Shown: positions 5,792-64,000 of the stretch, piece after piece
Numbering within the stretch: the stretch's first letter is position 1
How the letters are laid out: each line of letters opens with the position of its first letter
Assembly: GCF_009689005.1 (NCBI RefSeq)
Contig: NZ_AP021879.1
Coordinates: 6,821,501-6,885,500 of the forward strand
Direction: 5' to 3'
Origin: Desulfosarcina ovata subsp. ovata
GTDB lineage: Bacteria; Desulfobacterota; Desulfobacteria; Desulfobacterales; Desulfosarcinaceae
Length of the DNA: 64,000 nt
The notes under the pieces: model-generated
What the model was told of the DNA's origin: nothing
What the model saw: the letters and a program-made list of their open reading frames with translations, nothing else
Databases searched by the model: none
Position numbers and translations under genes: made by a program

Positions 5792-5799
5792 ATAACAAA

Positions 5800-45330: not shown

Positions 45331-45452
45331 TATTTGATCCAGTAAACTCATGTTAGATACTTGGATAAAAAAATTAGCGTTAGGTCATAGAAGCGTTGCA
45401 AAGGATGGCTGATCCGCCTGGAAAAAAACAGTTATTTTTTTTGGAGGAAAAA

Positions 45453-46271: not shown

Positions 46272-47675
46272 ATGTTTAAAAAAGTCGTTAAAGGCGCTCT
46301 GATCGGCGCGGCAGCCTTCATGATCGCTGCCCCGGCTCAGGCCACGATCGAAATCCATCTTTTCGGTGCCTCTGCACAGTACAAGTTTTGGACCTCGGCC
46401 GCACCCGAATTTTTGGCAAGCCCAAGTGGTGCCGACTGCCAAGGAATTGTTCAGCATGCGCTCAAAGAGGATGTTACAGATACCGATACGCTGATCAATC
46501 CTGACGGTGCCACTCCGGTAGATACCCGTGACGCAGGCGCCGCCCAGGGTTTTGACTGCCAGGGTACCGGTGAGCATGTGGTCATCACTTACACCACCTT
46601 CGCTTCCATCGCAGGGATTCAGGCCGTGAAAGGCTCCACCGCCTTCGATAATTGCGCCAACGGCGAAGCTGCCGTTCCTGACTGGGACAACTCGGATGGT
46701 GATAATGCCAGCATTACTTGGGGGACGTACCCTGCTGCTGCCGGAACCGTTGACGACCTGACCTGCAAGGACATTACAATCGGCGCCTCGGATGTTGCCG
46801 GCGAAACCTTCGGCCAGGAATCCCATGGCGAGCTGTATGGTCCCGATACCTCCGGAGGATGGTACGATTCCTATGCCAATCCAGAGGACACCACTGGTTT
46901 GGATAACTGCCAGCCGATCATCGTGCCGTTCTCCTTTTATGCTCATAAGGACACCGCCATCAACAGCACTGTCGATCTCGAAGCGCTGTACGCTGGCGTC
47001 TGCGATCCGGAACTGTTCGGCTGGTGGGACACAACCATTCTTCCGGGCAGCATTACCGGTAACATGACCCGGCTCATGGCTACCCTTATATTTGCAGGCC
47101 ATATTAATAACTGGGCAGACTTTGGTTATTCCGCCCAGGCGATTACCGCCTGCATGCGTCACGCCGGTTCTGGGACGCATGCCACTCTGGATGCCGATGT
47201 TTTTCGTGGCGACGCCGTGTTGGCGAAAACGGAAGTGTTGCCAGGCTCATTCGCATATATGGGGGGGGCTACACCCGTCGTTTACTTCAACAAAGGCTCT
47301 TCGGATATGATGTCCTGCATCGATACTGTTGGCGCCGGTGCCGTTGGCTACGCTGATTCTGATAAAAACGGTGGCGCTCCGGATGGCTCTGATAAAAATA
47401 CAAATATCGTACGTTTGACCTACATGGGCGCTGACGGCAACGCTCATTGGGTAAAATACGGCGTCTATGACTTTTGGTCAGCCCAGTGGCTCTATTGGGA
47501 TGAAAATGAGAGCACGGAAGTAAAAGAAAAAATCGCAGAATTGTGCGCCTATGCTTCCGAAGGTGACAACATCCCCTGCAGTAGAAAAGAGTTCTGGGTC
47601 GCCGGTGGTGACATGCGCGTTTACAAGGCCGATGATTTTACATGGCCCAAGAAAACCGGTAATTACGCTCCGTAA
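46272..47675 (+). CDS. Exported periplasmic-binding-fold (PstS-like) protein
   Basis: The 467-residue protein has a signal peptide (MFKKVVKGALIGAAAFMIAA, cleavage near PAQA-TI) and then IEIHLFGASAQYKFWTSAAP, the opening pattern of PstS-like substrate-binding folds. Middle segments (LMATLIFAGHINNWADFGYS, ACMRHAGSGTHATLDADVFR) match the binding-site loops of that fold (the conserved W.D and RH..SGT). Cysteines are frequent and may form disulfides. No transporter genes accompany it, so it may not be a transporter component. A GAGGAG site precedes the ATG. It follows the PEP-CTERM-like gene by 69 bases and probably shares its riboswitch-controlled transcript. Confidence 0.7.
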   Translation: MFKKVVKGALIGAAAFMIAAPAQATIEIHLFGASAQYKFWTSAAPEFLASPSGADCQGIVQHALKEDVTDTDTLINPDGATPVDTRDAGAAQGFDCQGTGEHVVITYTTFASIAGIQAVKGSTAFDNCANGEAAVPDWDNSDGDNASITWGTYPAAAGTVDDLTCKDITIGASDVAGETFGQESHGELYGPDTSGGWYDSYANPEDTTGLDNCQPIIVPFSFYAHKDTAINSTVDLEALYAGVCDPELFGWWDTTILPGSITGNMTRLMATLIFAGHINNWADFGYSAQAITACMRHAGSGTHATLDADVFRGDAVLAKTEVLPGSFAYMGGATPVVYFNKGSSDMMSCIDTVGAGAVGYADSDKNGGAPDGSDKNTNIVRLTYMGADGNAHWVKYGVYDFWSAQWLYWDENESTEVKEKIAELCAYASEGDNIPCSRKEFWVAGGDMRVYKADDFTWPKKTGNYAP

Positions 47676-47936: not shown

Positions 47937-48818
47937 ATGATGGGAATTATGATGTGCAAACGTAATATTCAATTGGGGAGAACGATTATAGCCGGTGCCC
48001 TGGCACTCAGCATGCTATACGGGTGCACTACGACATCCACATCAGTAAAAAGAATAAACGCAGGGGATGCGGTCTTAGTAGATTACACATGTCGCATAGA
48101 AAATGGCGACATTCTGGCTTCCACGCAAGAACAAATAGTCTTCGAAAAAGAGGCGCAGGTATCGCACGCCTTTGTACCGATGAAAAGTTATGGATCCATT
48201 CCCTTGATGGTCAATCGTGAGATGAAAAAAACCGGAAAACCGATTACTCGCGGTCTGCAAGAGGAGATCAGCTATCGCCTTGGAAAACAGCTTATTGGCC
48301 AAGCATATGACCAGATCCTGCATTTGGCCGTTGCATCCGAAGCGATCGAAAACCTGCCGAAAATGGAAAGATATCTGCAAATCGCTAAGATCATACGGAG
48401 GCCGAAGCAGCGCGACATGCCGAAAGCTGATTTCATCAAGGTTGCTGGAAAGGAACCGAAAGTCGGAGAAATCCTGTTTGAAGACAGATCACTTCAATGG
48501 AGGGTCATGGACGTACAGAAAGACAGCGTGACGATACGCTATCTGGCTGAAGAAGGCCAGAGGATAACCCTTCCATCTTTTGGCGAAGCGATTGTCCGGG
48601 AAAAGGATGATCATTATAACCTAGAGATTCAGGGGCGTCCGGGAAGTTTGATACGGGTCGGCCCTTATATCGGACGAATCGTGGACATTACCAATAAACT
48701 ATTTATCATAGATTTCGAGCATCCCTTCGGTGGACGCGAACTATCCTGCGAAGTGACCGTAAAGAAAGAAAACGATCATGCCGCGCTCGACTTGGAATCG
48801 GATTCTAAAAAAGAATAA
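47937..48818 (+). CDS. FKBP/SlyD-like lipoprotein
   Basis: This 293-residue protein has a lipoprotein signal with lipobox SMLYGC (Cys about 29). The mature part begins RINAGDAVLVDYTCRIENGD, the first FKBP strand, has a helical insert (about residues 75-145), and ends with FIIDFEHPFGGRELSCEVTV, the SlyD-type closing strand HP.AG..L.F.V.V. It is thus a peptidyl-prolyl isomerase-like fold, probably a periplasmic chaperone anchored in a membrane. The usual catalytic aromatic residues cannot be checked by eye. AGGAGA stands 10 bases before the ATG. It precedes a second FKBP-like gene and the two-partner secretion genes, hinting at help with secretion or folding of the giant proteins. Confidence 0.7.
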   Translation: MMGIMMCKRNIQLGRTIIAGALALSMLYGCTTTSTSVKRINAGDAVLVDYTCRIENGDILASTQEQIVFEKEAQVSHAFVPMKSYGSIPLMVNREMKKTGKPITRGLQEEISYRLGKQLIGQAYDQILHLAVASEAIENLPKMERYLQIAKIIRRPKQRDMPKADFIKVAGKEPKVGEILFEDRSLQWRVMDVQKDSVTIRYLAEEGQRITLPSFGEAIVREKDDHYNLEIQGRPGSLIRVGPYIGRIVDITNKLFIIDFEHPFGGRELSCEVTVKKENDHAALDLESDSKKE

Positions 48819-48855: not shown

Positions 48856-50205
48856 ATGGATAGTATCGCAGGTGTACGGAAATTTTCGTTATTTATACTT
48901 CTTATTGGTTTAAGCATGATCGGCAGCGGCGCTGCCGCGATTGTTGCAGAGGCCGAGCCGGCGGTTGCTCCCAAAGAGGTGATGGTCAGCGATTATGAGC
49001 AATTTCAGACAATGCTTAAACAATCCATTGAAGAAGCAGAAGAAAAAGGTCAGAAGGAAATTTTTATTGAGCTGAAGGAAGATCCGAATATAGTTCAACC
49101 GGCGGATATGGTGGAGGTGGACTACACGGTCGTCGATCAACAGGGGCAAGTGGTCTACTCCACTAAAGAAGAAATGTTTGCGCGAATGGACGAAAGGTAT
49201 GCCGATTTGTTTGGACAGTCTGGAAAGGCAACCGGCGCGGAAACTGTGTTGGCAGGCTTTGCAGGGCTTTTTCCAGGTATCGGTCATGCTGTCCTGGGTA
49301 TGCATTCGGGAGAGAGGAAGAAAACTGAGGTTACTCCAGAAAAAGGATTCGGTGCCAGAGAGGAAAAAAAGGTGAAGGCCTATTCGCGGCGACGGGTGCT
49401 GCCGAAAATTGCCAGATTGACCGTAAACAGCTACCTGGAAAACTTCAAAAGTGCGCCGGAGACTGGAAAAGCGGTCAATTTTTCCACATACTTCCCATCC
49501 CGGGTCACCGGTGTGCAGAACGGGATCGTCACTCTGGAAAGCATGGCCGCAGATGGCAAGACCTACCAGGACGATTTCGGCGCAGCTACGGTTTCGGTTC
49601 AAGAAGATAGTGTCCTGATCACCCTAGAACCGTTGATTGGAGCGATTTTCGACGCAGAGGGAAAGCGGGGGGTTATCACTAAGAAAGATGCAGATCATTT
49701 TTATGTGGACTACAATCATCCGCTGGCCGGTACGAATCTGATTTTTGATGTTGCGGTTCACCGCCTTCAAAAATTCAGTGAGTTCGAGAAAATCCAAATT
49801 CCCTGGAATATAGATAACAACACGGCCATGGCGCTTGCCGAACAGGAGAACAAACCGGTGGTATTGGTGCTTTACGCCGAATGGTGCCATTGGAGTCAGC
49901 GATTGCTTACCAATACGTTCCGGGACCCGCGCATCAAACGGTTCCATGATCGATTCGTTTGGCTGAAGATCGATTCCGATAAAGAGCAGGTGTATAAAGA
50001 AATCTTCGGTCAAGAGAATTATCCCATGATCGTCCTGATGAATAGTCAGGGAGACATCCTGGAAAAAATAGGCGGTTTCCAGGACGGCGGCACGCTTGCT
50101 TTGTATCTGGAGAACATACTGACGGGGAAGACTCTTGCGAAAGCCATCGTTCATGCCAAGCAGCAATCTACTGCTTCATCGCAGCATTGCAAGTCCGCGG
50201 ACTAA
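48856..50205 (+). CDS. FKBP-like protein fused to a thioredoxin-fold domain
   Basis: A 449-residue protein. The N-terminal hydrophobic segment (FSLFILLIGLSMIGSGAAA) is a signal or anchor. Residues about 78-165 form FKBP (ADMVEVDYTVVDQQGQVVYS, FPGIGHAVLGMHSGERKKTE), and the SlyD-like second part ends near YNHPLAGTNLIFDVAVHRLQ (about residue 300). Then comes a thioredoxin-like domain (about 330-430): VVLVLYAEWCHWSQRLLTNT, with CHWS in place of CxxC, so it has a single active-site Cys, and YPMIVLMNSQGDILEKIGGF. It is probably a periplasmic chaperone/thiol protein. AAGGAGAA precedes the ATG, 37 bases after the lipoprotein gene, so they form an operon. Confidence 0.75.
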   Translation: MDSIAGVRKFSLFILLIGLSMIGSGAAAIVAEAEPAVAPKEVMVSDYEQFQTMLKQSIEEAEEKGQKEIFIELKEDPNIVQPADMVEVDYTVVDQQGQVVYSTKEEMFARMDERYADLFGQSGKATGAETVLAGFAGLFPGIGHAVLGMHSGERKKTEVTPEKGFGAREEKKVKAYSRRRVLPKIARLTVNSYLENFKSAPETGKAVNFSTYFPSRVTGVQNGIVTLESMAADGKTYQDDFGAATVSVQEDSVLITLEPLIGAIFDAEGKRGVITKKDADHFYVDYNHPLAGTNLIFDVAVHRLQKFSEFEKIQIPWNIDNNTAMALAEQENKPVVLVLYAEWCHWSQRLLTNTFRDPRIKRFHDRFVWLKIDSDKEQVYKEIFGQENYPMIVLMNSQGDILEKIGGFQDGGTLALYLENILTGKTLAKAIVHAKQQSTASSQHCKSAD

Positions 50206-50493: not shown

Positions 50494-52119
50494 ATGACGA
50501 AGACCCATTCAACGTGGCGGCTCGGTAGTTTCTGTCGGAAATTCTTATTCAGCTGGTTTAGTGGCTTTCTGGTGATTCTCATCCTTTGCATCAGTCGTCC
50601 CGGATGGGCTCAATCAGAGGAGGATATGGCCCGGTTCGACATCAAGGCCTTCGAGATCACCGGCAACACCATCTTTTCCGAATCAACGCTGCTGGACGCA
50701 TTGCGCCAATACCAGGGAGGCGACAAAACCGCTGAAGATGTGGAAAAGGCCCGCGCTGCCCTGGAACGCTACTACCACCAGAAAGGATACCCCACCGCCC
50801 TGGCCAATATCCCAGAACAGACCGTGGAAGGCGGCATTATCCGCCTAGAGGTGATCGAGAGCAAGATCCGGCGGGTACGCATCACCGGCAACCGCTTTTT
50901 CACCATGGAGAAGATCTTGAACGCCCTGCCCACCTTCCAGGAAGGAAAAATTCTATATGTTCCCAACGTGCAGACCGAATTGGCCGAACTGAACCGCAAC
51001 CCGGACCTCAAGGTGGCGCCGGTGCTCATGCCGGGCAAGGAACTGGGCACCATCGATGTGGAGCTCAAGGTCAAGGACAAGCTACCCCTGCACGGCAGCC
51101 TGGAACTCAACAACCGCAACACCCACGCCACCACGGAACTGCGGCTCAACGGCATGCTGCGCTACGACAATTTGTGGCAGAAGGACCATACCATATCCGT
51201 TCAGTTTCAAACCTCACCCCAGGACACTCAGGAGGTAGAACTCTTTTCCGGCTCCTATGTGTGGCCATCCTTTTTCGGTAAAGATAACATGAGTGTGCTT
51301 TACGGGGTGATATCGGACAGCGATACGGCCTTCGGGGGGGACTTTACCGTGGTCGGAAAAGGGGCCATCGTCGGATTTCGCGAGATCATCCCCCTAACCG
51401 GCATCGGTGATTATGCGCACAACCTGTCTTTGGGCGTGGATTACAAAGATTTCGATGAAGATCAACAGTTCGGTGAGGAATCCGAAACCGTCCCCGTCAG
51501 TTACCTTCCGCTCAGCCTTTCCTACAGTTCCTCTTTGAAGGGGGAGACCGGTGTCACCCGTTTCAACCTCGGATTGGGCCTGGCATTAAGGGGGCTGGTG
51601 AGCGACGAGAGTGAATTCGAATACAAGCGCTACAATGCCCGGGGTAACTACGTGGTCTTGAGCGCGGGGCTGGAACGGGCCCAGAACCTTCCCGGCGGCA
51701 TGAGCCTGCAGGTCAAGGCCAACGGGCAACTTGCCGATCAGCCGTTGATTTCCAACGAACAGTTCACCGCCGGCGGCATGATGAGCGTTCACGGATTCAG
51801 GGAGAGCGAAGCCAGCGGAGACAACGGGGTACTCGGCAACGCCGTTCTGAACAGCCCGGATCTGGCCGGCCCTTTTATTGCCGATAGCCGGTTTAAGATC
51901 AACCTCAAGGCCTTTTACGATGTGGCCTATCTGTCCAAAATCGACCCCCTGCCCGGAGAAGATGGCGAAACCAAATTGCAGGGGGCGGGTGCCGGTCTGC
52001 GGCTGGCCTGGGACAACCAATTCGAAGCCGTGGTGGATTGGGGCATGGCACTGGAATCCACCGCGGATACCGATTATGGGGATCATGTGGTCCATTTTTT
52101 AACCAAATTTCAGTTTTGA
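50494..52119 (+). CDS. TpsB outer-membrane transporter (two-partner secretion)
   Basis: The 541-residue protein belongs to the ShlB/FhaC/HecB group: a long signal region with a hydrophobic stretch ending near RPGWAQ-SE, two POTRA domains (FDIKAFEITGNTIFSESTLL and RRVRITGNRFFTMEKILNAL), then a 16-strand beta barrel. It includes LPLHGSLELNNRNTHATTEL, the VRGF-type motif as MSVHGFRESEASGDNG, and a final Phe (HFLTKFQF) for outer-membrane insertion. It exports the TpsA protein encoded next. ATG at 50494 follows GGAGAGAT. Only 56 bases separate it from tpsA. It is probably complete and functional. Confidence 0.92.
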   Translation: MTKTHSTWRLGSFCRKFLFSWFSGFLVILILCISRPGWAQSEEDMARFDIKAFEITGNTIFSESTLLDALRQYQGGDKTAEDVEKARAALERYYHQKGYPTALANIPEQTVEGGIIRLEVIESKIRRVRITGNRFFTMEKILNALPTFQEGKILYVPNVQTELAELNRNPDLKVAPVLMPGKELGTIDVELKVKDKLPLHGSLELNNRNTHATTELRLNGMLRYDNLWQKDHTISVQFQTSPQDTQEVELFSGSYVWPSFFGKDNMSVLYGVISDSDTAFGGDFTVVGKGAIVGFREIIPLTGIGDYAHNLSLGVDYKDFDEDQQFGEESETVPVSYLPLSLSYSSSLKGETGVTRFNLGLGLALRGLVSDESEFEYKRYNARGNYVVLSAGLERAQNLPGGMSLQVKANGQLADQPLISNEQFTAGGMMSVHGFRESEASGDNGVLGNAVLNSPDLAGPFIADSRFKINLKAFYDVAYLSKIDPLPGEDGETKLQGAGAGLRLAWDNQFEAVVDWGMALESTADTDYGDHVVHFLTKFQF

Positions 52120-52175
52120 TGAAAGCGATTGTCGATATCAATGCGAAAAAGCACCCTCAGCTGAGAAATTAAGCG

Positions 52176-55100
52176 ATGAAACCGTCATTTTTACTGAAGC
52201 GGCTGTTGGCTTTCATACTGGCGCTTGACCTGATTATTTTCCCGATGACCCTCGCCGCGCAAAATATTCCCGGTTTTTATGGGTCCTCAGGCACTCTGGT
52301 GCAGCCATCGGCCAACCAACTGCCGGTGATCCAGAGTATCGTCAGCAACGTATCCAGTCTGGAGCAAGTGGGGAATAACAAGCTGATCGTTCACCAAACG
52401 AATGATAAAGCCGTTCTGGAGTGGAAGTCATTCGACATCGGTGCCAATGCCTGGACCCACTTTGACCAACAGGGCAATACCAATTGGTCGGCCCTCAACC
52501 GTATTTACGATCAAAATCCCAGTCAGATCTTCGGGCGACTGACCGCCGATGGAAGCGTTTACCTGATCAACCAGAACGGCATTCTTTTCAGCCAGGGGTC
52601 GAGCGTGGATGTGCATGGGCTGGTGGCTTCCTCCTTGAACATCGCTCAGGATGCGTTCGAGGACGATTTGATGACCTTTGCCGCCGAAAATTACCAGGGG
52701 GTGGAAGGTTACGACGCATCGGCCGTGGCGGTTTCCAATCACGGAACAATAGAAACGGACAACGACGGTACGGTGATGCTCATCGCATCCACCGTGGAGA
52801 ACAATGGCACCATTACTGCTCCTTTGGGCACCATCATTTTGGCGGCCGGGTCCGAGGTCGCGGTTACGGAAAATGAAACGACCGGCGGGGAAACCTATAC
52901 GGTCAGCTATAGCGGATCCGCCACCGACCAAGCCGTTAATTTCGCCGACGGCTCCCTGGATGCATACAGTGGCTATATTGGCATGTTCGGACAAGTGGTC
53001 AATCAAGAGGGGCTGGTCAAGGCGGTGACGGCCATCCGCCAGAAGGGCCAGGTCGTGTTAAAAGCCAAGGAGGCACTGGTTCTCGCCGAAGGCAGCCTCA
53101 CCAGCAGCCCCATATCCGAATCGGATGAAACCGTTACGGAGTCTTCGACTTTTTCGACCGGAAAAATTACCCTGGAAAGCGAAGGCACCATCGACGTTAA
53201 GGGATCGATCGTCGCACCGTCCGGCGATATCGTTTTGAGCGGCGATGAGCGGGTGTATCTGGATTCGAACGCCCTGGTTGACGTCAGCGGCAGTTGGGTG
53301 GTTTTGCCGGCCGAAGAGGCGGTGGCCAGTGTTCAGCTCAACAGCGTCGAACTCAAGGACGACTACGCCCAGAAGGACAGCATCCTGCAAGGGCAGACGA
53401 TTTATTTCAATCTGGTGGAAGGGTCGAGCATCGGCGATGTCTCCGGTACGCTGACCACGGATGAGAAAACCGCCCTAGAGCGCAGCACGGCCGGCGGCAG
53501 CATCGAGATTACCTCTGCGAACGGCGACGTCATCGCCCGGTCCGGGTCGACCATCGACTTTTCGGGAGGCGGATGGGTTTATCTCGATGGTGTGACCAAT
53601 ACAACGATTCTGATTTCGGGAACCGATGTCTATACCATTGCGGATGCACCCGATAGTTTGGATTACGACACCATAATCGGCCCCGACAACCTAGTTACCG
53701 ACACCAATGAACGTTTCGGCATGTCCACATCCTACGACGGTGTCTACCATACCGGGTCAGCCAGTGCCGTCGGAAACTATTTTGAGGGGTATATTCAGGG
53801 AGATGATGCCGGTTCGCTGACCGTCATTGCACCGGTCGTGTTGCTCAATGGTACGTTGGACGGATCGGTCACGACCGGCGTCTACCAGACCGAGGATTCC
53901 GAGGACAGTGATGAAAACGGTTACCAGAGTACCCTCGGAATTGAACGTCCCGAGGCGGGCCAGCTGATTGTCGGCGGGGCTTACTCCGGCGGCTATTGGG
54001 AAGATCGAGACCCGGTGATTACCGCGATTACCATCTCATCGGAGAGCTGCCTGCTGGGAGACGATTTCGATTCGTCCACCCATCTTTCGGAATATTTAGC
54101 GAATTATATAGACAATTGGTCCGGCGAATCCATTGTATCGGCTGAGCTTTTAAGCGAATCGGGATTAAACGACATCACCCTATCGGTCCGTGAAAGCGTC
54201 GTTGTCGAGGCCGATGCAGTAATCGAGTTGGATTCGACCGGTTCCCTGACGCTGGCCGGACGGCATATCGAACATTATGGCGAAATTATCATTCCCGAGG
54301 GCAATGTCAGCCTGGTTCTGTCCAACAACAAGAGTGCCGATGAAGACAGCGATTCGTACGTCGATGCCGAAGCCCTTGGATACGAAAGAATTTATCTGGG
54401 CACAGGCAGCCTCATCGACGTCTCCGGGGAGCAAGTCGATTTGACCGAGGTGGCGCAACTGGATGGTGTAGCTTCGGATCCGGGGCAGATCGACGGCGGC
54501 ACGGTCATCCTGGCGGATTGGACCGATTCTGGTGAGGGTGTGATGGTCATGCCGGAGGCAGCGATCGATGTCAGCGGCGGATGGCGGATCGACGGGGATG
54601 GGACAATCAGCGGCGGCAATGCCGGAACGATCGAGATCTCAGGTTCATCGATTTACCTGAATGGTGACCTTTACGCCTACGCACTTTCCGATGCTGATGG
54701 GGGCACTCTCGATCTGCATACCGAAGGGATTACCGTGACGGCGGAGACCCAGGTGTCGGCTCTGCCTGAGGATTTCGGGGCCACCGATCCATTGACCGAT
54801 GATATCGCTGAATTCCTGGCCATTAGCGACGATCAGATCGACATCACGGGGGCTTCGGTGATCAATCTGACGAGCGTGACCGACTTGGTCGTCGAAGACG
54901 GAGTGGTTCTGACGCCGTCCACCTTGAGACTGACCGGCCCGGAACTGAGCGCCGACAGCACCGACGAGGAGGATGCGGCGAATTATACCGCGGCTGAGAC
55001 ATCCCTCACGGCAGGTAACGGCGAGGCAATTGTTCGGGTGACGCTTGACGAGGTCGGCGAATCGGCCATCTCCCTTCGTGCAGGAAAGACGTTGAGCAGT

Positions 55101-58100
55101 TCTAACTGCGAGTACATCCTTCCAAACGAACTGACCGATCAGAATGAACTGGCCACGGTGCGCATTGATGCCGAAACCATCGTGACGGTTGCGCCCCAAG
55201 GCACCATCGACATTACTGCTCCGTCCGTGGACATTGCCGGGCAGGTATCGGCCCCGGCAGGCACCATCGAACTTGAGGCCACATCAGCGGATAGCGGCAT
55301 GGCCTTGACAATCCAGTCTGGTGCGCTGGTTTCAGCTACCGCCGACAACCTGCCGGTCGAGCAAACCCTAACGACTGCGTCGGACGCGGCGTACGAAGCC
55401 TTAGACGGTGGAACGATTTCTCTCACTTCAGCCGGAGACCTGATCGTGATGGCGGAGGCCGTCCTGGACGTGTCCGGATCTGAACCGGTGGGTTCCCTGT
55501 ATCTAACTGCAGATGGTACCTATCAATCCCAAACCGTCGCCGGGGCGCCGGGGACCATTGAGATTACCTACCTCGATGAATTTATACTGGAAGGCGAACT
55601 TCGGGGAGAGGCTACGCTGGACAGCATGCACGGCGGGACCCTCTCCGTGTATAAGTCCGCCGTGAACGAGGCTTATGAACTTCAATCTGCAGTGCTTGAG
55701 ACCTACATCCGGTCCGGATTCGACGACATCACCATGGCTAGTGCCTGCGAATTGATTTTTACTGACGACGTGGACGTGAGTCTCGAGCGTAAACTGACCC
55801 TGGACGCTCCGGTAATCTCGACGAGCGGCCAGACTGTTACCCTGACCGCCCCGTGGCTCGTACTGACCAATACCTACCTGCCCGATGACGAGACATCGCC
55901 CACTGTGGAGTCCGGTGATTTGAGCCTTTCCGCCGACTGGATCGACGTTGAAGGTGCCGTGACGCTCTCCGGTTTTGCGACTGTAAGCCTGGAGGCCGGT
56001 GATGATCTGCGTCTTGAGGATTATTATTACACCACCAGCGATTTGAACGAATGGTGGGGGCTTCTCGAAACCGGGGCGGACATGCTTATTGACGCCGACC
56101 GGGTCTATCCTACAACCGCAACCCTTTTTTCCATTGTGACCACAGGCGATGTCACCACCCTGGCAACCACAGCCGATGACTCGACCAATCCGGTCTATTC
56201 CGCGTACGGCAGCCTAACCCTGGAGGCCGCCAACATCCAACACAAGGGGCGCTGGTACGCCCCCATGGGCCAACTCGAACTGACCGCTACCGGCGAAGAC
56301 GGACGCATCTACCTGGACAGCGACAGTGTCCTTTCCGTGTCCGGAGAGACATCGGTCAACTACGGCTTTTTTGACGATGAGGGCATCGTCTGGCAGGTGA
56401 CGGACAAAAGCGCCACCACAGGTCTATCCACCACGGTCGATGTGGCCCCGGAGACGGCGGTAACTTTGATCGGAGAAGAGGTGATCCTGCAGGATGGTGC
56501 CAGTGTAGATATTTCGGGCGGCGGCGAGATTTTTGGGTACCAATGGCTTGCCAGTGTCAATGGCTCCTCGGACCCGCTGGATGGGGTTTCTGTGATTATT
56601 CCCGGTTATTCGGATTCTCTCCCTGGCGAGGCCGTCTACCTGGCGGGCAACGAACTGATCGAAGCGGGCGTTTATACGCTTCTCGACGAATCCTACGCTT
56701 TCTTGGAAGGAGCGATGATCATTGAGGACCTGGGGACGGTCACAAACGCTTTCAATACGACCCAGTCCGATGACGGTTATGCGGTGAGCACAGGATATAC
56801 GATTATCGCAGGAACCGATTTCACCGCCTCCCAGCAGCATTTCTACAGTGTTCGTGAAGCTACGGATGTCTTGGCCGAGGGAACTTTCAGCATCGAGCGG
56901 ATTACCGTTGGCGACGGCGGTGATTTCTCGGTCACGGCCGATACGATCGTGCTCGACGGCACCTTCGAGGCCTCGGCCCTGGACGACAGTTACGAGGGCG
57001 GCACACTATCCATGGCCAGCACCAACATTATAATCAGCACGGTTGGTTCCAGTCTGCCCGACGATTTCGCTTACACCAACCAATTACCGGACGATGTGGC
57101 GGGAAGCCTGTACATCGATGCGAACGAGATCAGTGACGGCGGCTTTAATGACGTTACGCTCGGCGACGTGAGTCTTACCGAGAGCGTGGTTTTTGAATCT
57201 GGTTCTTCCCTGGAGGCGGCCAACATCACCGTCACGGCCACCGACAGTATTGTTGTCGAGGCGGACAGTTCGCTCAGCGCCACTGACGAAGACGGGGGCG
57301 TGCTCACGCTCGATTCCTCGGATGGAAGCATAACGGTTGCCGAATCCGCCACCCTTCATGCCACCAATGAAATCGCAATCGATACCTCCGCCATCGACCT
57401 TGACGGAGACGTTGTCGTGGACAACAGTCTTTTAAGCCTCCTTGGCGATACAATTGTCATTTCTTCCGATAGCGGCGGCCTGGTGTCCCTGGATGGTTTG
57501 ATCATCGACGATGAGCTATGGGAAAAAATCAAAGCGATTGACACTATCAATCTGTCCAGCCGATCGGAGATCGACTTCATGGGCGATGTGAACCTGGCGG
57601 CCGACGGCATCCTGATCCTGGACAGCGACAGCATCGTTCTTGACGGCGGCAGCGTGACCGTAGCAGCATCCCAAATCATCCTGCAGAACACCAGCCTGAC
57701 CGGGGAGACCTTTTCCGATATTTCCGGGACTTCCTCGTGTGATACGGGGTCGATCTCGTTTGCCGCCGACGACATGACCATCACGCTTGGGGAAATGGCC
57801 GATGATGACGCCGATGACGATGCCTATAACAGCCTGGCGATTTTGGGGGCCGCCGACCTGAGCATCACCGTTACCAACAACCTGGTGGTGGCCGGCGAGG
57901 GCACACTGTCCACCGAAGGTGACTTGGAAATCGAATCGGCTGCCATCGTCACAACCCTGATTGAAACAACCGGCGATGAGGCGGACGATACCACGGAGAT
58001 AACGGCGGCCAATATCGTCCTGGCCAGCAGCACGGGAACCATTACCACCGCTTCCAACGGCAACACGGCCGACACGGACACCGGCTACGGCGGAGCGATC

Positions 58101-61100
58101 ACCTTACAGGGTGTCTCAATTGACCATGGCGGGACGATTTTAAGCCCTTCGGGCACGATTACGCTGGCGGCCACGGGTTCGGATTCCGGCGACAATGTCG
58201 TCTTGCGCTCTGGATCGACCCTGGATGCGGCCGGCACGGAGAACGCCGCAGGGGGTACAGTGAACCTGGAAAGCAGTCAGGGGGCTGTGGAGGTAGCAAT
58301 CGGGGCTGTGGTGGATGTCTCGGCCGGCGATCAGGGGGACGCGGGAACCGTTTCCGTTGTGGCCCGGAACGGCAGCGTGCAACTGTTGGGCAATTTCTAC
58401 GGTCAGGCCAATGGTGGAACGGGGGGCAGCTTCGTGCTGGACAACCTGACCATCGACGATTTCGCTCTCCTGTCCGATTTGTTGACCGGCAGTGGATTCA
58501 GCGAGGATATCGATCTGCGGGCACGCACAGGCGATATCGCGATTGACACCACGGACAGTCTGGCCGCCTCCACGATTACCCTGGTCGCCGATACGGGCAG
58601 CGTGACCGTGGCGGGCACCCTGGACGCATCCGGTGCCTACGGTGGCGGGTCTCTGGAGATCGACGCCGGCCAGGATATCGTGATCAGCGGCATGCTCAAT
58701 GCCCAGGCCACGGATGCGGGCGACGGCGGGGAAATTGGTCTTTATTCAACGCAAGGGTCCATCGATATTCGTTCCGGCTCTGAAATTATCCTGAGCAGTT
58801 CTGGAGAGAATGCCACTGGCGGGAGTTTGTATCTGCGTGCCCTGAGAACCAGCGACAGCCTGAAGGTCTCCCTTGCCGGCGATATCACGGGTGCTTCAAA
58901 GATCACCGTTGAAGGATACGCGGCGGATGAAAGCACCACGGTTACCTCGACTTACCTCGACGGACTCGTCAGCGATGCTGCTAATTGGCTAACCAACCTC
59001 AATTTTACATACACAGCGGAAGGCGTCGACGATATCTTCACGGTCATCGCGGGCATTGAGATCGATTCGGAAACCGATCTGAGCGTCAGCGAGGCTGTTG
59101 ATCTCTCCGATTACGAAAGTCAAATCGGTTATGGCGTTTTGACCCTGCGCAGTGCCGCCGACCTGACAATCGACGAGAACATCACCGATATTCGCACTGT
59201 CGATTTAACAACACTGCGGGAAGATACGGCACAAGACACTTGGAGGATCAATCTGATCGCCGGTGCGAACCTGACGAGCAGTGACCCGCTGGCGACAGAT
59301 GCGTCCACTGTTACAGGAACGCTGACGATTGCAGACGGCGTGTTGGTCTATACCGAAAGCGATGCTATTCGTTTCGCTTCGGCCGGTGACACGATAGTGG
59401 GCACCGCCGGATCACTGGATCCCATGAGTAATTCTTCAATGGATTACAACATCGGATCGTTCAGCGGGTCGGTGTACGGCTACACCGGGGGAGATCTAAT
59501 AATCAAAGCCGACCGCAACAATGGAAGCGGCATTCAAACCGCTACCGGGGACATTCGACTGGTCGTCGAAGGGGATCTCTCCCTTACCAGCGGCAACTAC
59601 ACGGGAGCGATTCGTACGATCGGCGAAGCACCTATGACTTCCGAGACTTTCCCCGAAGCGACACCCGCAGAAATGGCTCTCTTCTATTGGGAATATACCA
59701 ACGGGGGGGATATCGTCCTGAATATCGGCGGGGATATCAATGGACGTACATTGAAAAAAGATGCCTGGGACGCTAGTTCACTCGATATCTACTACCATGC
59801 GGATTATTCGGACGGAGGCGCTAGGGGCATCGTCACCATGGCGGGCGGCAGTATCGCCATCGACGCCGCAGGAGACGTCACCTGCGCCGCAGGAACCTTC
59901 GGCCAGGGTGATCTGAGCATCAATGCGGGCGGCGATCTCAACGGCCGGTTTCTGATCAACGACGGACGTGCCAGCCTGAACACCATGGAAAACTTCGGCC
60001 TGCTCGAAGGACTTGAAAATCAGCCCATCGAGGTATTCGGTGCCGAGGTCGAACTGACCGCCCAGGGCAGCATTACCCTGGGGACGATACTGAACCCGAC
60101 CATCGCCAATGACGATTTCAATTATGACGCATCATGGATGTTGGGTTATACCACGGAAACCGCTGTGTCGCTTTCCTCGATACGTGGTGATGTCACCCTT
60201 ACCGGGATATCAAGGTTTTATTCGTACTCCCAGGAGAAACAGATGTCGAGGGGACGGATACTGCCCGCCTCGCTGACCATCGATGCCGCCGGCGATATCA
60301 TTTTGGAGAACTCTTTTTACATGGTGCCATCGGCGACGGGGAACCTTTCGTTAACCGCCGGTGGCGATATTCGGGCCGATTCCGACGCGGACCGATCGTA
60401 TACGGTATATATGTCCGATATGGCCCTGTCGTTCGTTTATTGTTCGATCTATGGCGATTTCAATGCAAAAGATATCGCCGATGCACTCGTCTCTGCCAGT
60501 AAATCGGAACATGCTGACTCCATTTTGCATTTGGATGATGAGATACCGGTTGTCATTACCGCCGGCGGAGATATCCGCAACCTGAATGTGAACATTCCCA
60601 AGGCCTCGGAAATCATTGCCGGCGGCGACATTCAGAACCTGTTTCTCTTTGGGCAAAACATTGATGCGGATGACCTTACGATCGTATATGCCGGCGGGGA
60701 TATCATCTACACGACTTCTATTATAACGACGTATAACAGCGGTATCGAAATCGGCGGGCCTGGTACCGTGATCGTCGCCGCCGGAGACAGCATCGACCTG
60801 GGAAGTTCCGAAGGAATTAGACTGGTCAGCAGCAGCTATAACACGGCACTGTCGAACTCGGAAATGACGCTCTATATTTTCGCTGGGCTTGGGCTGGATG
60901 CAGAAGCGATTATAGACCTGGTCGGTGACACGGCGATGTTTTTTGAAAGCCTTAGAGAAGAAGGCGAGGTATACAGTGAGGCTTTGGCTGAAGGAGACGA
61001 CATTAACGCGCAAGAAATTCTCGATGAGATCAACGCTACTATTATCGATTCTTACTTTGCCGGGACGGCTGCAGAAGACAGTGGAATAACAGGCAACATA

Positions 61101-61913
61101 GATATGGTCAATTCTGAGATCAACGCAAAAGTCGGGGTGGGTGATATTTATATCGTGGCTACCGGGGAAATCAACGTCGGCAAATCCACAATCTCTTCGT
61201 CCAGCGATGAAGGTTCAAATACAGGTATTTACACCACCTCCGGCGGTGCCATCAATATCTTTGCCAACGGGGACATTAATGTCAATGAGTCTCGTATTAT
61301 GACATTCCTCGGTGGGGAAGACGATATGGGAGACATCACCGTTTGGTCGCAGGAAGGAAATATTAACGCGGGTAAAGGGTCTAAAACAGCGATCACGGCA
61401 TCTTCGCCGAAACTTGTAGAAGATGAAAACGGCGAACTTAAAATACAATGGTCTCCCCCATCGGTGGGCAGCGGCATACGTTGTCTGACCTACGATCCGG
61501 ACGGCCCTGAAGGGCCAATAGATCAACCCGATGCGGGAGATATCTACCTGTTCGCACCTGCCGGTGAGATCGATGCTGGCGAGGCGGGCATTGCAGGAAG
61601 CAATATCATCCTGGCGGCGATCGAGGTTGTCAACGTCCAAAATATTGAAGTGGGCGGAACCGCTGTGGGGGTTCCCGACACCTCCCTGGCCGCGACCAGC
61701 CTGGGCGCCCTTGCCGGATCGGGGGCGGTTTCCGAGACCAGCAAAATCGCAGAGGAACAAGCGGGGTTGGCCAATGCCCAGGAACGCTTTTCAAAATTCG
61801 TCGAAGACATCTCCGGGAATCTGGTACCCAAGTGGATCGCCGTGGAGGTGGTCGGTTTCGGAGAGACGGATGACACAACCGATTCGTCGAGTGAAGATTC
61901 CGTCAATGACTAG
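52176..61913 (+). CDS. TpsA filamentous-haemagglutinin-type giant exoprotein
   Basis: A 3245-residue secreted protein. Residues 1-28 are the signal peptide. Residues about 30-260 form the TPS secretion domain, with WKSFDIGANAWTHFDQQGNT, LNRIYDQNPSQIFGRLTADG and VYLINQNGILFSQGSSVDVH. A very long beta-helical region of repeats (GD..L, GG.I.L..) follows. Near residues 2770-2900 the DUF3739-type pattern appears: AGGDIRNLNVNIPKASEIIA, GPGTVIVAAGDSIDLGSSEG. The end reads QERFSKFVEDISGNLVPKWI-AVEVVGFGE, typical of this subclass. It has no C-terminal anchor, so it is released or held by its TpsB. Function is probably adhesion or aggregation. Its stop overlaps or abuts the ExbB-type gene, which is unusual for TPS pairs. 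Confidence 0.9.
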   Translation: MKPSFLLKRLLAFILALDLIIFPMTLAAQNIPGFYGSSGTLVQPSANQLPVIQSIVSNVSSLEQVGNNKLIVHQTNDKAVLEWKSFDIGANAWTHFDQQGNTNWSALNRIYDQNPSQIFGRLTADGSVYLINQNGILFSQGSSVDVHGLVASSLNIAQDAFEDDLMTFAAENYQGVEGYDASAVAVSNHGTIETDNDGTVMLIASTVENNGTITAPLGTIILAAGSEVAVTENETTGGETYTVSYSGSATDQAVNFADGSLDAYSGYIGMFGQVVNQEGLVKAVTAIRQKGQVVLKAKEALVLAEGSLTSSPISESDETVTESSTFSTGKITLESEGTIDVKGSIVAPSGDIVLSGDERVYLDSNALVDVSGSWVVLPAEEAVASVQLNSVELKDDYAQKDSILQGQTIYFNLVEGSSIGDVSGTLTTDEKTALERSTAGGSIEITSANGDVIARSGSTIDFSGGGWVYLDGVTNTTILISGTDVYTIADAPDSLDYDTIIGPDNLVTDTNERFGMSTSYDGVYHTGSASAVGNYFEGYIQGDDAGSLTVIAPVVLLNGTLDGSVTTGVYQTEDSEDSDENGYQSTLGIERPEAGQLIVGGAYSGGYWEDRDPVITAITISSESCLLGDDFDSSTHLSEYLANYIDNWSGESIVSAELLSESGLNDITLSVRESVVVEADAVIELDSTGSLTLAGRHIEHYGEIIIPEGNVSLVLSNNKSADEDSDSYVDAEALGYERIYLGTGSLIDVSGEQVDLTEVAQLDGVASDPGQIDGGTVILADWTDSGEGVMVMPEAAIDVSGGWRIDGDGTISGGNAGTIEISGSSIYLNGDLYAYALSDADGGTLDLHTEGITVTAETQVSALPEDFGATDPLTDDIAEFLAISDDQIDITGASVINLTSVTDLVVEDGVVLTPSTLRLTGPELSADSTDEEDAANYTAAETSLTAGNGEAIVRVTLDEVGESAISLRAGKTLSSSNCEYILPNELTDQNELATVRIDAETIVTVAPQGTIDITAPSVDIAGQVSAPAGTIELEATSADSGMALTIQSGALVSATADNLPVEQTLTTASDAAYEALDGGTISLTSAGDLIVMAEAVLDVSGSEPVGSLYLTADGTYQSQTVAGAPGTIEITYLDEFILEGELRGEATLDSMHGGTLSVYKSAVNEAYELQSAVLETYIRSGFDDITMASACELIFTDDVDVSLERKLTLDAPVISTSGQTVTLTAPWLVLTNTYLPDDETSPTVESGDLSLSADWIDVEGAVTLSGFATVSLEAGDDLRLEDYYYTTSDLNEWWGLLETGADMLIDADRVYPTTATLFSIVTTGDVTTLATTADDSTNPVYSAYGSLTLEAANIQHKGRWYAPMGQLELTATGEDGRIYLDSDSVLSVSGETSVNYGFFDDEGIVWQVTDKSATTGLSTTVDVAPETAVTLIGEEVILQDGASVDISGGGEIFGYQWLASVNGSSDPLDGVSVIIPGYSDSLPGEAVYLAGNELIEAGVYTLLDESYAFLEGAMIIEDLGTVTNAFNTTQSDDGYAVSTGYTIIAGTDFTASQQHFYSVREATDVLAEGTFSIERITVGDGGDFSVTADTIVLDGTFEASALDDSYEGGTLSMASTNIIISTVGSSLPDDFAYTNQLPDDVAGSLYIDANEISDGGFNDVTLGDVSLTESVVFESGSSLEAANITVTATDSIVVEADSSLSATDEDGGVLTLDSSDGSITVAESATLHATNEIAIDTSAIDLDGDVVVDNSLLSLLGDTIVISSDSGGLVSLDGLIIDDELWEKIKAIDTINLSSRSEIDFMGDVNLAADGILILDSDSIVLDGGSVTVAASQIILQNTSLTGETFSDISGTSSCDTGSISFAADDMTITLGEMADDDADDDAYNSLAILGAADLSITVTNNLVVAGEGTLSTEGDLEIESAAIVTTLIETTGDEADDTTEITAANIVLASSTGTITTASNGNTADTDTGYGGAITLQGVSIDHGGTILSPSGTITLAATGSDSGDNVVLRSGSTLDAAGTENAAGGTVNLESSQGAVEVAIGAVVDVSAGDQGDAGTVSVVARNGSVQLLGNFYGQANGGTGGSFVLDNLTIDDFALLSDLLTGSGFSEDIDLRARTGDIAIDTTDSLAASTITLVADTGSVTVAGTLDASGAYGGGSLEIDAGQDIVISGMLNAQATDAGDGGEIGLYSTQGSIDIRSGSEIILSSSGENATGGSLYLRALRTSDSLKVSLAGDITGASKITVEGYAADESTTVTSTYLDGLVSDAANWLTNLNFTYTAEGVDDIFTVIAGIEIDSETDLSVSEAVDLSDYESQIGYGVLTLRSAADLTIDENITDIRTVDLTTLREDTAQDTWRINLIAGANLTSSDPLATDASTVTGTLTIADGVLVYTESDAIRFASAGDTIVGTAGSLDPMSNSSMDYNIGSFSGSVYGYTGGDLIIKADRNNGSGIQTATGDIRLVVEGDLSLTSGNYTGAIRTIGEAPMTSETFPEATPAEMALFYWEYTNGGDIVLNIGGDINGRTLKKDAWDASSLDIYYHADYSDGGARGIVTMAGGSIAIDAAGDVTCAAGTFGQGDLSINAGGDLNGRFLINDGRASLNTMENFGLLEGLENQPIEVFGAEVELTAQGSITLGTILNPTIANDDFNYDASWMLGYTTETAVSLSSIRGDVTLTGISRFYSYSQEKQMSRGRILPASLTIDAAGDIILENSFYMVPSATGNLSLTAGGDIRADSDADRSYTVYMSDMALSFVYCSIYGDFNAKDIADALVSASKSEHADSILHLDDEIPVVITAGGDIRNLNVNIPKASEIIAGGDIQNLFLFGQNIDADDLTIVYAGGDIIYTTSIITTYNSGIEIGGPGTVIVAAGDSIDLGSSEGIRLVSSSYNTALSNSEMTLYIFAGLGLDAEAIIDLVGDTAMFFESLREEGEVYSEALAEGDDINAQEILDEINATIIDSYFAGTAAEDSGITGNIDMVNSEINAKVGVGDIYIVATGEINVGKSTISSSSDEGSNTGIYTTSGGAINIFANGDINVNESRIMTFLGGEDDMGDITVWSQEGNINAGKGSKTAITASSPKLVEDENGELKIQWSPPSVGSGIRCLTYDPDGPEGPIDQPDAGDIYLFAPAGEIDAGEAGIAGSNIILAAIEVVNVQNIEVGGTAVGVPDTSLAATSLGALAGSGAVSETSKIAEEQAGLANAQERFSKFVEDISGNLVPKWIAVEVVGFGETDDTTDSSSEDSVND

Positions 61914-61954
61914 TGGTTAATTGCCGATTCGGCAGTTCTAATGCGGAGGCATGT

Positions 61955-63763
61955 GTGAGAAGAACAATCGCGGCATTTCTATGTTGGCTGGTATTGATAA
62001 CCATGGGCTTTACAACCCTGCCGAACATCTGCTCGGCCGAAGAGGGGTGGTGGAACGAGGGCTGGCAGTATCGGCGCAAGATCAGTTTCAATACCACACC
62101 GACGGGTGCGGACATCCAGGAGAACCTCAGTGACGTGCCGGTGCTGGTACGGCTGCATTCGGGCAATTTCAGTTTTACCAGCGCCCGTGACGACGGGGGA
62201 GACATCCGTTTTGTCGCCGGCGACGACACCACTTTGCTTAAGCACCACATAGAAAGAATCGACACCCTGGATGAAATCGCGCTGATCTGGGTGAAGGTGC
62301 CGCGGATCGGCGGCGGCAGCGACCAGGGATTTATCTGGATGTATTACGGCAACGAAAACGCGCTCGGCGGGCAGGATTCCGGTGGTAGTTTCGGAGCCAG
62401 CCAGGTGGGGGCGTATCACCTGGGAGAGGTGGAGGGACTGCCCCAAGATGCCACGGCCAACACCAACCATGCCGTCGTCTTCTCCGGTGGTCAGGGACTT
62501 CCCGGTGTAATCGGTAACGGCGTTGCGCTAAACGGGGCCGGTGACCGTATGGAAATCGCCGCCGCGCCGTCCATGGATTGGTCGGCCGGCTTCAGCCTTT
62601 CGGCCTGGGTGCGCATCAACCTGTCCCAGACCGATGCCTGGCTTTTCTCCCGGCAGGACAGTGATACGGCTTTTGTGGTGGGTATCGATGGCACCAAGGT
62701 GTATGCTGAGATTACCGTTGCGGATGGAAGCCGAAAGGTCGCTACCGACCAGAGCACCGACCTGGCGTTGGGTTCCTGGCATCTGGTCACGGTTACCGGC
62801 ACGCCAGGCGGCCGGCTGTCGATCCATCTCGACGGGATGGAGATGACCTGGACCGATTTGCCCCGAGATTTTTCCCTGCCGGGTGGGGACATCGTCATCG
62901 GCGATGCCGACGCTGGCGAGCATGGTTTCATTGGCGATCTGGATGAGGTGGGAATATATACCCAGCCGCTTTCCAACGACCGTATCAGAACTTCTTTTGC
63001 CACTCAGGGCCCCGAAGGCCTGATGCTGGCTTACGGCCCGGAAATCATGGGCGGTGGTGGTGGCGTGCCCGCGTTTTACCTGGGGACGATTTTGAGAAAC
63101 ATCACCATGGACGGCCTGATCGTTATCGGCCTGTTAATGGTGCTTTCCATCATCAGCTGGCTGGTGTTTTTGAGTAAAACCGGTTTTCTCTACCTGGCGG
63201 GCCGTGAGAACAGGAACTTCCTGGCCGCTTATAAGGCCAGCGACGATCCGGCGGGGACGCTGATCGAGGGCGGCAAGCTTAATAATTCCAACCTTTACCG
63301 CATCTACCGGGCCGGATATGCGGTGATCGAAAAATATTTGCGGTCAGAGAAGGCTGGATCCGCTGACGCCACTGGCGCCGGTTTGTCCGGCCCAACCCTG
63401 AAAACCCTGCGAACGGAGCTGGAGAAGAACTTCATCAATGAGACCAAGCGGCTCAACAGCAATCTCACCGTGCTTACCATGGCCATCTCCGGCGGTCCTT
63501 TTCTGGGGTTGCTGGGAACCGTATGGGGCGTCATGAACACGTTTGCCGCCATGGCCGAGGCCGGTGAGGCCAACATCATGGCCATTGCCCCGGGTGTGGC
63601 ATCGGCCCTGTCCACAACTGTCGTCGGGCTCATCGTGGCCATTCCGGCCCTTTTCGCCTACAACTTTCTGGTCAGCCGGATTAAGGACATTACCGTGGAT
63701 CTGACGGTTTTTGTCGATGAATTTGCCCTCAAGGCTGAAAACGGAAGCGGAGACACAGCATGA
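61955..63763 (+). CDS. DUF2341/LamG-ExbB fusion: proton channel with exported lectin-like domain
   Basis: A 602-residue protein. GTG at 61955 is taken as start because GGAGG lies 5 bases before it and a signal peptide follows (RRTIAAFLCWLVLITMGFTT, cleavage near CSA-EE). Residues about 32-130 match DUF2341 (WWNEGWQYRRKISFN, DVPVLVRLHS, FIWMYYGN). Residues about 140-345 are a LamG/concanavalin-like fold (FSLSAWVRINLSQTDAWLFS, GSWHLVTVTG). After GGGGG come the ExbB/TolQ helices: MDGLIVIGLLMVLSIISWLV and SGGPFLGLLGTVWGVMNTFA with IAPGVASALSTTVVGLIVAI. Such proteins use the proton gradient to drive work across the envelope. It follows tpsA by 41 bases and overlaps exbD (ATGA). The lectin-like part may bind glycan or the exoprotein; inferred. 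Confidence 0.85.
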   Translation: MRRTIAAFLCWLVLITMGFTTLPNICSAEEGWWNEGWQYRRKISFNTTPTGADIQENLSDVPVLVRLHSGNFSFTSARDDGGDIRFVAGDDTTLLKHHIERIDTLDEIALIWVKVPRIGGGSDQGFIWMYYGNENALGGQDSGGSFGASQVGAYHLGEVEGLPQDATANTNHAVVFSGGQGLPGVIGNGVALNGAGDRMEIAAAPSMDWSAGFSLSAWVRINLSQTDAWLFSRQDSDTAFVVGIDGTKVYAEITVADGSRKVATDQSTDLALGSWHLVTVTGTPGGRLSIHLDGMEMTWTDLPRDFSLPGGDIVIGDADAGEHGFIGDLDEVGIYTQPLSNDRIRTSFATQGPEGLMLAYGPEIMGGGGGVPAFYLGTILRNITMDGLIVIGLLMVLSIISWLVFLSKTGFLYLAGRENRNFLAAYKASDDPAGTLIEGGKLNNSNLYRIYRAGYAVIEKYLRSEKAGSADATGAGLSGPTLKTLRTELEKNFINETKRLNSNLTVLTMAISGGPFLGLLGTVWGVMNTFAAMAEAGEANIMAIAPGVASALSTTVVGLIVAIPALFAYNFLVSRIKDITVDLTVFVDEFALKAENGSGDTA

Positions 63764-64000
63764 GAAGAGACCTTTTCGATCTCCAGGGATTTGACGAAAT
63801 CAACGTCACCCCATTGCTTGACCTGGCCTGGACCCTCCTTGTTGTTTTTATCATCGCCGTTACGGCATCCATCCAGGGTATCAAAGTCAACCTTCCCAAG
63901 GCCAGCAATACGCCAAGCCTGGTCAAACCAAAGACCAAAGCAATTACCATCGACGCCAGCGGCCAGTTTTACCTGGATGCCTATCCGGTCACCCTTGCGG
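63760..64000 (+). CDS. ExbD/TolR-family protein (incomplete at window end)
   Basis: Eighty residues are visible: MRRDLFDLQGFDEINVTPLL, then the single membrane helix DLAWTLLVVFIIAVTASIQG with the conserved proton-path Asp at its start (LLDLAW), then IKVNLPKASNTPSLVKPKTK and the first strand of the periplasmic domain (AITIDASGQFYLDAYPVTLA). It overlaps the ExbB-type gene by ATGA and is its obligate partner in ExbB5-ExbD2-type motors. TonB-like and further genes would be expected beyond the window. The rest of the protein is cut off. Confidence 0.92.
   Translation, partial: MRRDLFDLQGFDEINVTPLLDLAWTLLVVFIIAVTASIQGIKVNLPKASNTPSLVKPKTKAITIDASGQFYLDAYPVTLA

What the first reader, a model, noticed from the sequence alone, without database searches (positions are those of the whole stretch)
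50494..64000. Two-partner secretion locus wired to an ExbBD proton motor with its own lectin-like exodomain
tpsB, a 3245-residue tpsA, a DUF2341/LamG-ExbB fusion and exbD run head to tail, with gaps of 56 and 41 bases and then an ATGA overlap. Classical TPS needs no energy input at the outer membrane. Here a proton channel is in the same transcriptional unit, and its exported half could touch TpsA, glycan or peptidoglycan. The gene order suggests energised export, retraction or release of the giant exoprotein. I know of no described mechanism, but the architecture may recur in other genomes.
Basis: partly seen in the sequence, partly recalled or inferred. Interest (0 to 1): 0.8.

Follow-up and report, generated by a model that had tools for sequence, protein, structure and literature searches.

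The report
Two-partner secretion locus with own Ton-motor
A bacterial gene cluster that exports one giant surface protein also carries its own proton-driven motor (ExbB–ExbD–TonB); this pairing is kept in nearly every relative examined, across several phyla, so a secretion route thought to need no energy may have an energised form whose mechanism nobody has tested.

Summary
In detail: tpsB, a 3245-aa tpsA, a DUF2341/LamG–ExbB fusion and exbD lie head to tail; tonB and a Porin_5 gene follow just past the window. The order is not local. In 50 named contigs carrying the full-length fusion, ExbD follows in 49/49 testable cases, TonB in 47/48, Porin_5 in 43/45; a DUF3739-type TpsA directly precedes it in 46/49. 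In 369 genomes of another class, 22 of 23 with DUF3739 also have DUF2341 (1.9 expected). The same module is published, uncharacterised, in Pseudomonas aeruginosa as pdtA/pdtB–exbB2–exbD2–tonB4–PA0696, induced by phosphate starvation. New here: the two-way coupling; a lectin-fold ExbB ectodomain; invariant proton-path residues; a TonB without the canonical motor-binding Ser/His; a conserved C-terminal strand motif on TpsA's disordered tail (35/37); a PstS-family neighbour (19/20). Most likely a dedicated Ton motor acts on the outer-membrane TPS/porin apparatus, with TpsA's tail as the best coupling candidate; that step is inferred. Energised export is neither shown nor excluded. A new variant of a known but uncharacterised kind.

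The parts
46272..47675 (+). PstS-family (PBP_like_2) substrate-binding protein with signal peptide; conserved neighbour of the module
   Evidence: hmmsearch 3.7e-142 with family profile, which includes this protein; relatives over PF12849 cut-off; nearest solved structures are PstS phosphate-binding proteins; present in 19/20 loci with upstream sequence
47937..48818 (+). FKBP-like/PPIase-related periplasmic protein, likely chaperone
   Evidence: similar to the FKBP_C protein next door by phmmer; weak FKBP_C match in a relative; an FKBP-like gene in 20/20 loci
48856..50205 (+). FKBP_C + thioredoxin-like protein
   Evidence: Pfam FKBP_C and Thioredoxin_7
50494..52119 (+). tpsB: outer-membrane TPS transporter (POTRA_2 + ShlB barrel)
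   Evidence: 1.4e-85 with the Klebsiella plasmid TpsB; only ShlB in the genome
52176..61913 (+). tpsA: 3245-aa exoprotein, TPS domain (aa 60-308), beta-helix, DUF3739 (aa 3052-3167), disordered tail
61833..61859 (+). conserved C-terminal strand motif of TpsA (WIAVEVVGF, aa 3220-3228) in the disordered tail
   Evidence: 35 of 37 relatives match against 0.0045 expected per 80 aa; tail pLDDT under 50; coordinates
61955..63763 (+). DUF2341 + LamG ectodomain fused to ExbB/TolQ proton channel (signal peptide, periplasmic lectin-fold domain, three TM helices)
   Evidence: model pLDDT 86; LamG Z 23.8 to an arabinanase lectin-fold domain; both channel threonines invariant 62/62
63760..64000 (+). exbD (continues to 64167-equivalent). 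Beyond the window in L002, where L002 position p = window 63500+p: exosortase 804-1826, tonB 1888-2631, Porin_5 2745-4364, coiled coil 4379-5098, MauE-Trx 5105-6043, TPR 6170-8584
   Evidence: proton-binding Asp 67/67

Best explanation
The locus encodes a two-partner secretion system with a dedicated Ton-type motor. TpsB exports the giant beta-helical TpsA. ExbB (with a periplasmic DUF2341-LamG ectodomain), ExbD and a TonB use the proton gradient to do work at the outer membrane on this TPS/porin apparatus. The most likely coupling point is TpsA's flexible C-terminal tail, which ends in a conserved beta-strand motif: the last part to be exported would stay in the periplasm and could be gripped by the TonB C-terminal domain through strand addition, to hold, complete or release the exoprotein. 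The wider module (Porin_5, FKBP chaperones, a PstS-family protein, phosphate-starvation control in P. aeruginosa) suggests it serves phosphate-related scavenging or survival under phosphate shortage. Shown here: gene content and order, two-way co-occurrence, intact motor residues, the conserved tail motif, lectin fold, PstS homology. Inferred: that the motor acts on TpsA, which step it powers, and the phosphate role outside P. aeruginosa.
For: Conserved order and strict pairing; DUF3739-DUF2341 co-occurrence 22/23 in an independent sample, p ~1e-27. All 8 DUF3739 genomes among 60 relatives (the window's own included) carry the fusion. Fusions form one side of a well-supported branch among sampled ExbBs (99/97). 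Proton-path residues invariant: ExbB Thr 62/62 and 62/62, 33 apart, ExbD Asp 67/67. TpsA tail motif in 35/37, in a segment AlphaFold leaves disordered. No comparable conserved motif seen in the TpsB linker or Porin_5 N-terminus. TonB/TolA C-terminal domains bind targets by beta-strand addition (PMC12204202). Phosphate links: PstS-family protein; PdtA, PA0696 and PA0698 among the proteins most enriched in low phosphate (PMC9769906), PhoB/sigma-VreI control (PMC4971064).
Against: No physical interaction was tested and no TonB-TpsA complex could be modelled here. Classical TPS works without energy input, even reconstituted in liposomes (PMC5422565). In the Proteobacterial members the TpsA tail motif is looser and is followed by about 25 more residues. 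In P. aeruginosa pdtA is transcribed apart from pdtB-exbB2-exbD2-tonB4 (PMC4971064), which weakens a strict stoichiometric link. Conserved porin and PstS-family neighbours fit import at least as well.
Confidence: 0.48

Rival explanations
1. Import, not export: TpsA is a surface catcher of a phosphate-containing ligand, Porin_5 is its outer-membrane pore, TonB-ExbBD energises passage, and the PstS-family protein receives the cargo in the periplasm. Logic as in HxuA/HxuB/HxuC haem piracy but with a plug-less porin.
For: Porin_5 in 43/45 loci; PstS-family neighbour 19/20 and in Burkholderia loci; 5'-nucleotidase domain among Burkholderia/Cupriavidus/Variovorax neighbours; PhoX and alkaline phosphatase genes between the fusion and TpsA in Methylomagnum; low-phosphate induction together with OprO/OprP in P. 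aeruginosa (PMC9769906).
Against: Porin_5 has no plug domain and no conserved TonB-box-like segment near its N-terminus; no TonB-dependent receptor among the genes read; PstS here has no permease genes beside it; the tight partner is DUF3739 TpsA rather than any importer.
Confidence: 0.3
2. A stress island without mechanical coupling: TPS, Ton motor and porin are co-regulated for phosphate starvation, and the motor energises receptors encoded elsewhere.
For: Regulation as one regulon in P. aeruginosa (PMC2729926, PMC4971064); Methylomagnum has tpsA 17 kb away from the motor genes and no tpsB beside them.
Against: Same ordered cassette kept across Desulfobacterota, Nitrospirota and Proteobacteria including plasmids; specialised ExbB ectodomain and TonB; DUF2341-ExbB with ExbD/TonB not seen away from this module in the loci read.
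Confidence: 0.14
3. An envelope-anchoring motor like TolQRA: the LamG domain binds glycan or peptidoglycan and the complex stabilises the cell envelope around a very large surface filament.
For: ExbB part scores best against TolQ by sequence; LamG fold matches carbohydrate-binding domains.
Against: No Pal-like partner in the cassette; the genome has other ExbBD sets, one with a TolA-like transducer; a shared fold says nothing about ligand.
Confidence: 0.08

Closest known systems
Pseudomonas aeruginosa PUMA3/sigma-VreI regulon: pdtA-phdA-pdtB-exbB2-exbD2-tonB4-PA0696..PA0699 (PMC2729926, PMC4971064, PMC7035377)
   Same: TPS pair + ExbB + ExbD + TonB + putative porin + PPIase; [quoted passage not shown] A Klebsiella plasmid locus (L117) with that published layout is homologous part for part to the window (TpsB 1e-85, fusion 5e-93, ExbD 3e-45, porin 1e-59, TonB 1e-17).
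   Different: Window has no VreA/sigma/VreR cassette, has tpsB-tpsA order, FKBP-type rather than PpiC-type PPIases, a PstS-family neighbour and an exosortase gene. Whether PA0693 carries DUF2341 could not be tested here.
Classical two-partner secretion (FhaB/FhaC, HMW1)
   Same: TPS secretion domain, POTRA_2 + ShlB barrel, long beta-helix.
   Different: No ExbB is mentioned in the review PMC5422565; DUF3739 C-terminus with conserved tail motif; no conserved plug-helix segment before POTRA was apparent.
TonB-ExbB-ExbD / TolA-TolQ-TolR
   Same: Channel threonines and ExbD aspartate, transducer with TM helix, proline-rich linker and TonB_2 C-terminal domain.
   Different: ExbB has a DUF2341-LamG periplasmic domain; TonB lacks the Ser-x3-His of the SHLS motor-binding motif (0 of 57) although two TonB/TolA-like transducers in the same genome have it; no TonB-dependent receptor in the locus.
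HxuA/HxuB/HxuC haem acquisition
   Same: TPS exoprotein used together with a TonB-driven step.
   Different: HxuC is a TonB-dependent receptor; here the outer-membrane protein is a plug-less Porin_5 and the motor itself is in the locus.
DUF2341-bearing generic ion transporters noted in PMC12505986
   Same: A-subunit with N-terminal DUF2341.
   Different: That paper reports the domain without function; no TPS link is stated in the passages found.

Membership tests
Two-partner secretion (type Vb) | TpsA with N-terminal TPS secretion domain | tested here: met
   PF05860 2.7e-23, TIGR01901 2.5e-19
Two-partner secretion (type Vb) | TpsB with POTRA_2 and ShlB/FhaC barrel, adjacent | tested here: met
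   PF08479 4.8e-17, PF03865 6.8e-19
Two-partner secretion (type Vb) | Export without energy input | not testable with these tools
   needs mutants or protonophore
Ton/Tol motor | ExbB/TolQ three-TM channel with two conserved threonines | tested here: met
   62/62 at both, 33 residues apart; hmmsearch to TolQ structures 2e-34
Ton/Tol motor | ExbD/TolR with transmembrane Asp | tested here: met
   67/67
Classical TonB (SHLS-type) | SHLS motor-binding motif in the TonB TM helix | tested here: not met
   Ser-x3-His in 0 of 57, present in two other transducers of the same genome
Classical TonB system | cognate TonB-dependent receptor with plug and TonB box in the locus | tested here: not met
   No TonB-dependent receptor found among the cassette genes profiled; no conserved segment before POTRA of TpsB
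PUMA3/Pdt TPS-Ton module | TPS pair with ExbB, ExbD, TonB, porin in one locus | tested here: met
PUMA3/Pdt signalling (vreA-sigma-anti-sigma, PhoB control); lineage-specific regulation, not a part of the machine | vreA-sigma-anti-sigma cassette and PhoB control | tested here: not met
   no VreA/VreR homologue in window or L002 apart from a weak hit to the TonB; no Pho box above chance. So the window is filed with the machine but not with the PUMA3 signalling system.
PUMA3/Pdt TPS-Ton module | sequence homology to PA0690-PA0696 themselves | not testable with these tools
   no P. aeruginosa genome held by name; linked only through Klebsiella L117
PstS family | phosphate-binding substrate-binding protein fold and ligand motif | tested here: met
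   PF12849 over cut-off in relatives, best solved hits PstS; R/GSGT and GASD columns largely 96-100% conserved; their role as phosphate ligands is recalled, and phosphate binding itself is untested

The most novel reading that the evidence does not exclude
DUF3739 exoproteins are exported or held by a proton-powered form of type V secretion: TonB grips the C-terminal strand of TpsA in the periplasm by beta-strand addition, and the LamG-bearing ExbB motor pulls, holds or releases the filament. This would be the first energised two-partner secretion system, spread across at least three phyla and some plasmids.
Probability: 0.3. Interest if true: 0.9.

Novelty: new variant of a known kind. Interest (0 to 1): 0.62.

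Why it matters
TPS is taught as a route that needs no energy at the outer membrane. A large TPS subclass that comes with its own Ton motor makes the question of energy in type V secretion directly testable. It also gives function-bearing context to DUF2341, DUF3739 and a TonB type without the usual motor-binding motif, and it places an 'uncharacterized putative TonB system' of P. aeruginosa within a widespread module.

Tried and rejected
TonB box on TpsB: no conserved segment between signal peptide and POTRA, so rejected. Pho box near the locus: five matches with 4.1 expected, no support. DUF2341 or DUF3739 in the 14 control genomes: no bacterial hit, but P. aeruginosa is not among those seen to be included, so nothing follows. 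Phage relatives: only plain ExbB/TolQ-like matches. E. coli genomes: no near match to the Klebsiella fusion. Structural matches of the LamG part to botulinum/tetanus binding domains are the shared lectin sandwich and are not read as a toxin relation. Exosortase gene as part of the machine: rejected, found between exbD and tonB only in the window's close relatives. DUF2341-only genomes in the gamma/beta sample: G487 is a fusion with ExbD, TonB and Porin_5 near a contig start; two others checked are a short LamG-type protein and a contig-end fragment. The single DUF3739 genome without DUF2341 (G583) has its match at the contig edge.
Full report
What is in the window. The four genes are as described. 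tpsB 50494-52119, tpsA 52176-61913, the fusion 61955-63763 and exbD from 63760 lie on the + strand with 56- and 41-base gaps and an ATGA overlap. Pfam gives POTRA_2 + ShlB, TPS domain + DUF3739, DUF2341 + LamG + MotA_ExbB, and ExbD, all above cut-off. tpsB is the only ShlB gene in the 7.63-Mb genome, whose close relatives include Desulfosarcina cetonica.

Past the edge. The genome continues (L002) with an exosortase, a TonB (TonB_2 domain), a Porin_5, a membrane-anchored coiled-coil protein, a MauE–thioredoxin protein and a TPR protein. A 14-pair palindrome follows the TPR gene, and no terminator-like site falls in the tpsB–tpsA–exbB–exbD junctions. Upstream are two FKBP-like genes and a PstS-family gene.

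Does the order recur? A scan of named genomes gave 50 contigs with the full-length fusion, from Desulfobacterota and relatives, Nitrospirota and one betaproteobacterium. Counting only contigs with enough sequence, ExbD follows in 49/49, TonB in 47/48 (the exception is a contig end behind an exosortase gene), Porin_5 in 43/45, and a DUF3739 TpsA directly precedes in 46/49; the other three have TpsB in the same locus. Twenty loci fetched further upstream show FKBP-like in 20, TpsB in 20 and the PstS-family gene in 19. Eleven plasmids hold the fusion over most of its length. Of ten fetched, all have ExbD and TonB next, nine a Porin_5 and nine TpsB and/or TpsA adjacent.

Is the pairing two-way? 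Among 60 relatives, 8 have DUF3739 and all 8 carry the fusion. In 369 genomes of the class of Pseudothauera, 23 have DUF3739 and 22 of these also have DUF2341, with 1.9 expected (Fisher p ~1e-27); the exception sits at a contig edge. All 32 fusion-bearing genomes tested have DUF3739. This test is at genome level; in a few of the 22 the DUF2341 protein may be a different, longer one (for example G484), and adjacency was read only in fetched loci.

Is the motor intact? The two channel threonines are invariant (62/62 each, 33 apart) and so is the ExbD aspartate (67/67). In a tree of 77 ExbB domains all 54 fusions fall on one side of a well-supported branch (99/97), with the caution that long branches meet there. 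The ectodomain model is confident (mean pLDDT 86); its LamG part matches lectin-type domains, best an arabinanase accessory domain (Z 23.8, rmsd 2.2, 190 residues). With ExbB/TolQ topology it lies in the periplasm.

What differs from classical Ton. TonB and TolA bind their motors through an SHLS motif, and their C-terminal domains bind targets by beta-strand addition (PMC12204202). None of 57 TonBs of this module has Ser-x3-His in the membrane helix, while two TonB/TolA-like transducers beside other ExbBDs of the same genome do. No TonB-dependent receptor was found in the cassette.

What might the motor hold? TpsB shows no conserved segment between signal peptide and POTRA, and the Porin_5 N-terminus shows only a loose helical repeat. 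TpsA, in contrast, ends in a conserved short strand (W-[LVI]-x-V-[KEQ]-[VIF]-x-x-[FL], then mostly acidic residues): 35 of 37 tails match the core pattern, against 0.0045 expected per 80 residues. The pattern was written after seeing the tails, so the contrast with the rest of the protein matters more than the exact figure. AlphaFold leaves the last ~80 residues disordered. A conserved linear motif at the end of a disordered tail suggests a binding partner. That it is TonB, the LamG domain or TpsB is inference.

What is it for? In P. aeruginosa the corresponding set is induced by phosphate starvation through PhoB and sigma-VreI (PMC4971064), and PdtA, PA0696 and PA0698 are among the most enriched proteins in low phosphate (PMC9769906). 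In non-proteobacterial loci a PstS-family protein is the steady neighbour; PstS-family genes also lie near two Burkholderia loci, and phosphatase genes near the Methylomagnum one. A phosphate-related role is therefore plausible but unproven outside P. aeruginosa. No Pho box stood out here.

What is known. The P. aeruginosa locus was described in 2009 and its TonB part called 'still uncharacterized' in 2020 (PMC2729926, PMC7035377). A Klebsiella plasmid locus with the published layout is homologous gene by gene to the window. The TPS review PMC5422565 says that no energy source powers type V translocation and does not mention ExbB. A 2025 paper lists DUF2341 on ion-transporter subunits without function (PMC12505986). 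Most subscription papers were not searchable, so earlier comment on the link may exist.

Verdict. It is a new variant of a known, uncharacterised kind.

Noticed in passing
window 50494-52119, aa about 430-433: The Omp85 loop-6 motif VRGY reads VHGF in the window and LHGY/VHGY in two relatives; 36 of 39 TpsBs of the module keep the arginine.
   Followed up: partly
L002:804-1826: XrtH-like exosortase gene inserted between exbD and tonB; also in D. cetonica, L059 and G008, not in other lineages.
   Followed up: partly
window 38415-44987 and 45396-46202: A 2190-aa PKD/Ig-repeat secreted protein ending in a Gly-rich CFI tail, and a 268-aa protein with similar N-terminal part and a PEP-CTERM-like end.
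   Followed up: no
L002:8764-20000: Apparent polysaccharide-export locus with AAA ATPase, chain-length determinant, TPR protein and glycosyl transferase-like genes.
   Followed up: no
G000:C1:6383001-6393000 (L152): Another motor set with a 478-aa ExbB-like protein, a second ExbB and ExbD side by side.
   Followed up: no
L002:1888-2631 and relatives: TonB of this module has a strongly conserved glycine-rich stretch (G.D.FGL...KGG..L) between linker and C-terminal domain.
   Followed up: no
L116, L117: Two Klebsiella plasmids, one of them conjugative, carry the module; L117 also has a VreA-sigma-FecR type cassette and two filamentous haemagglutinin genes.
   Followed up: no
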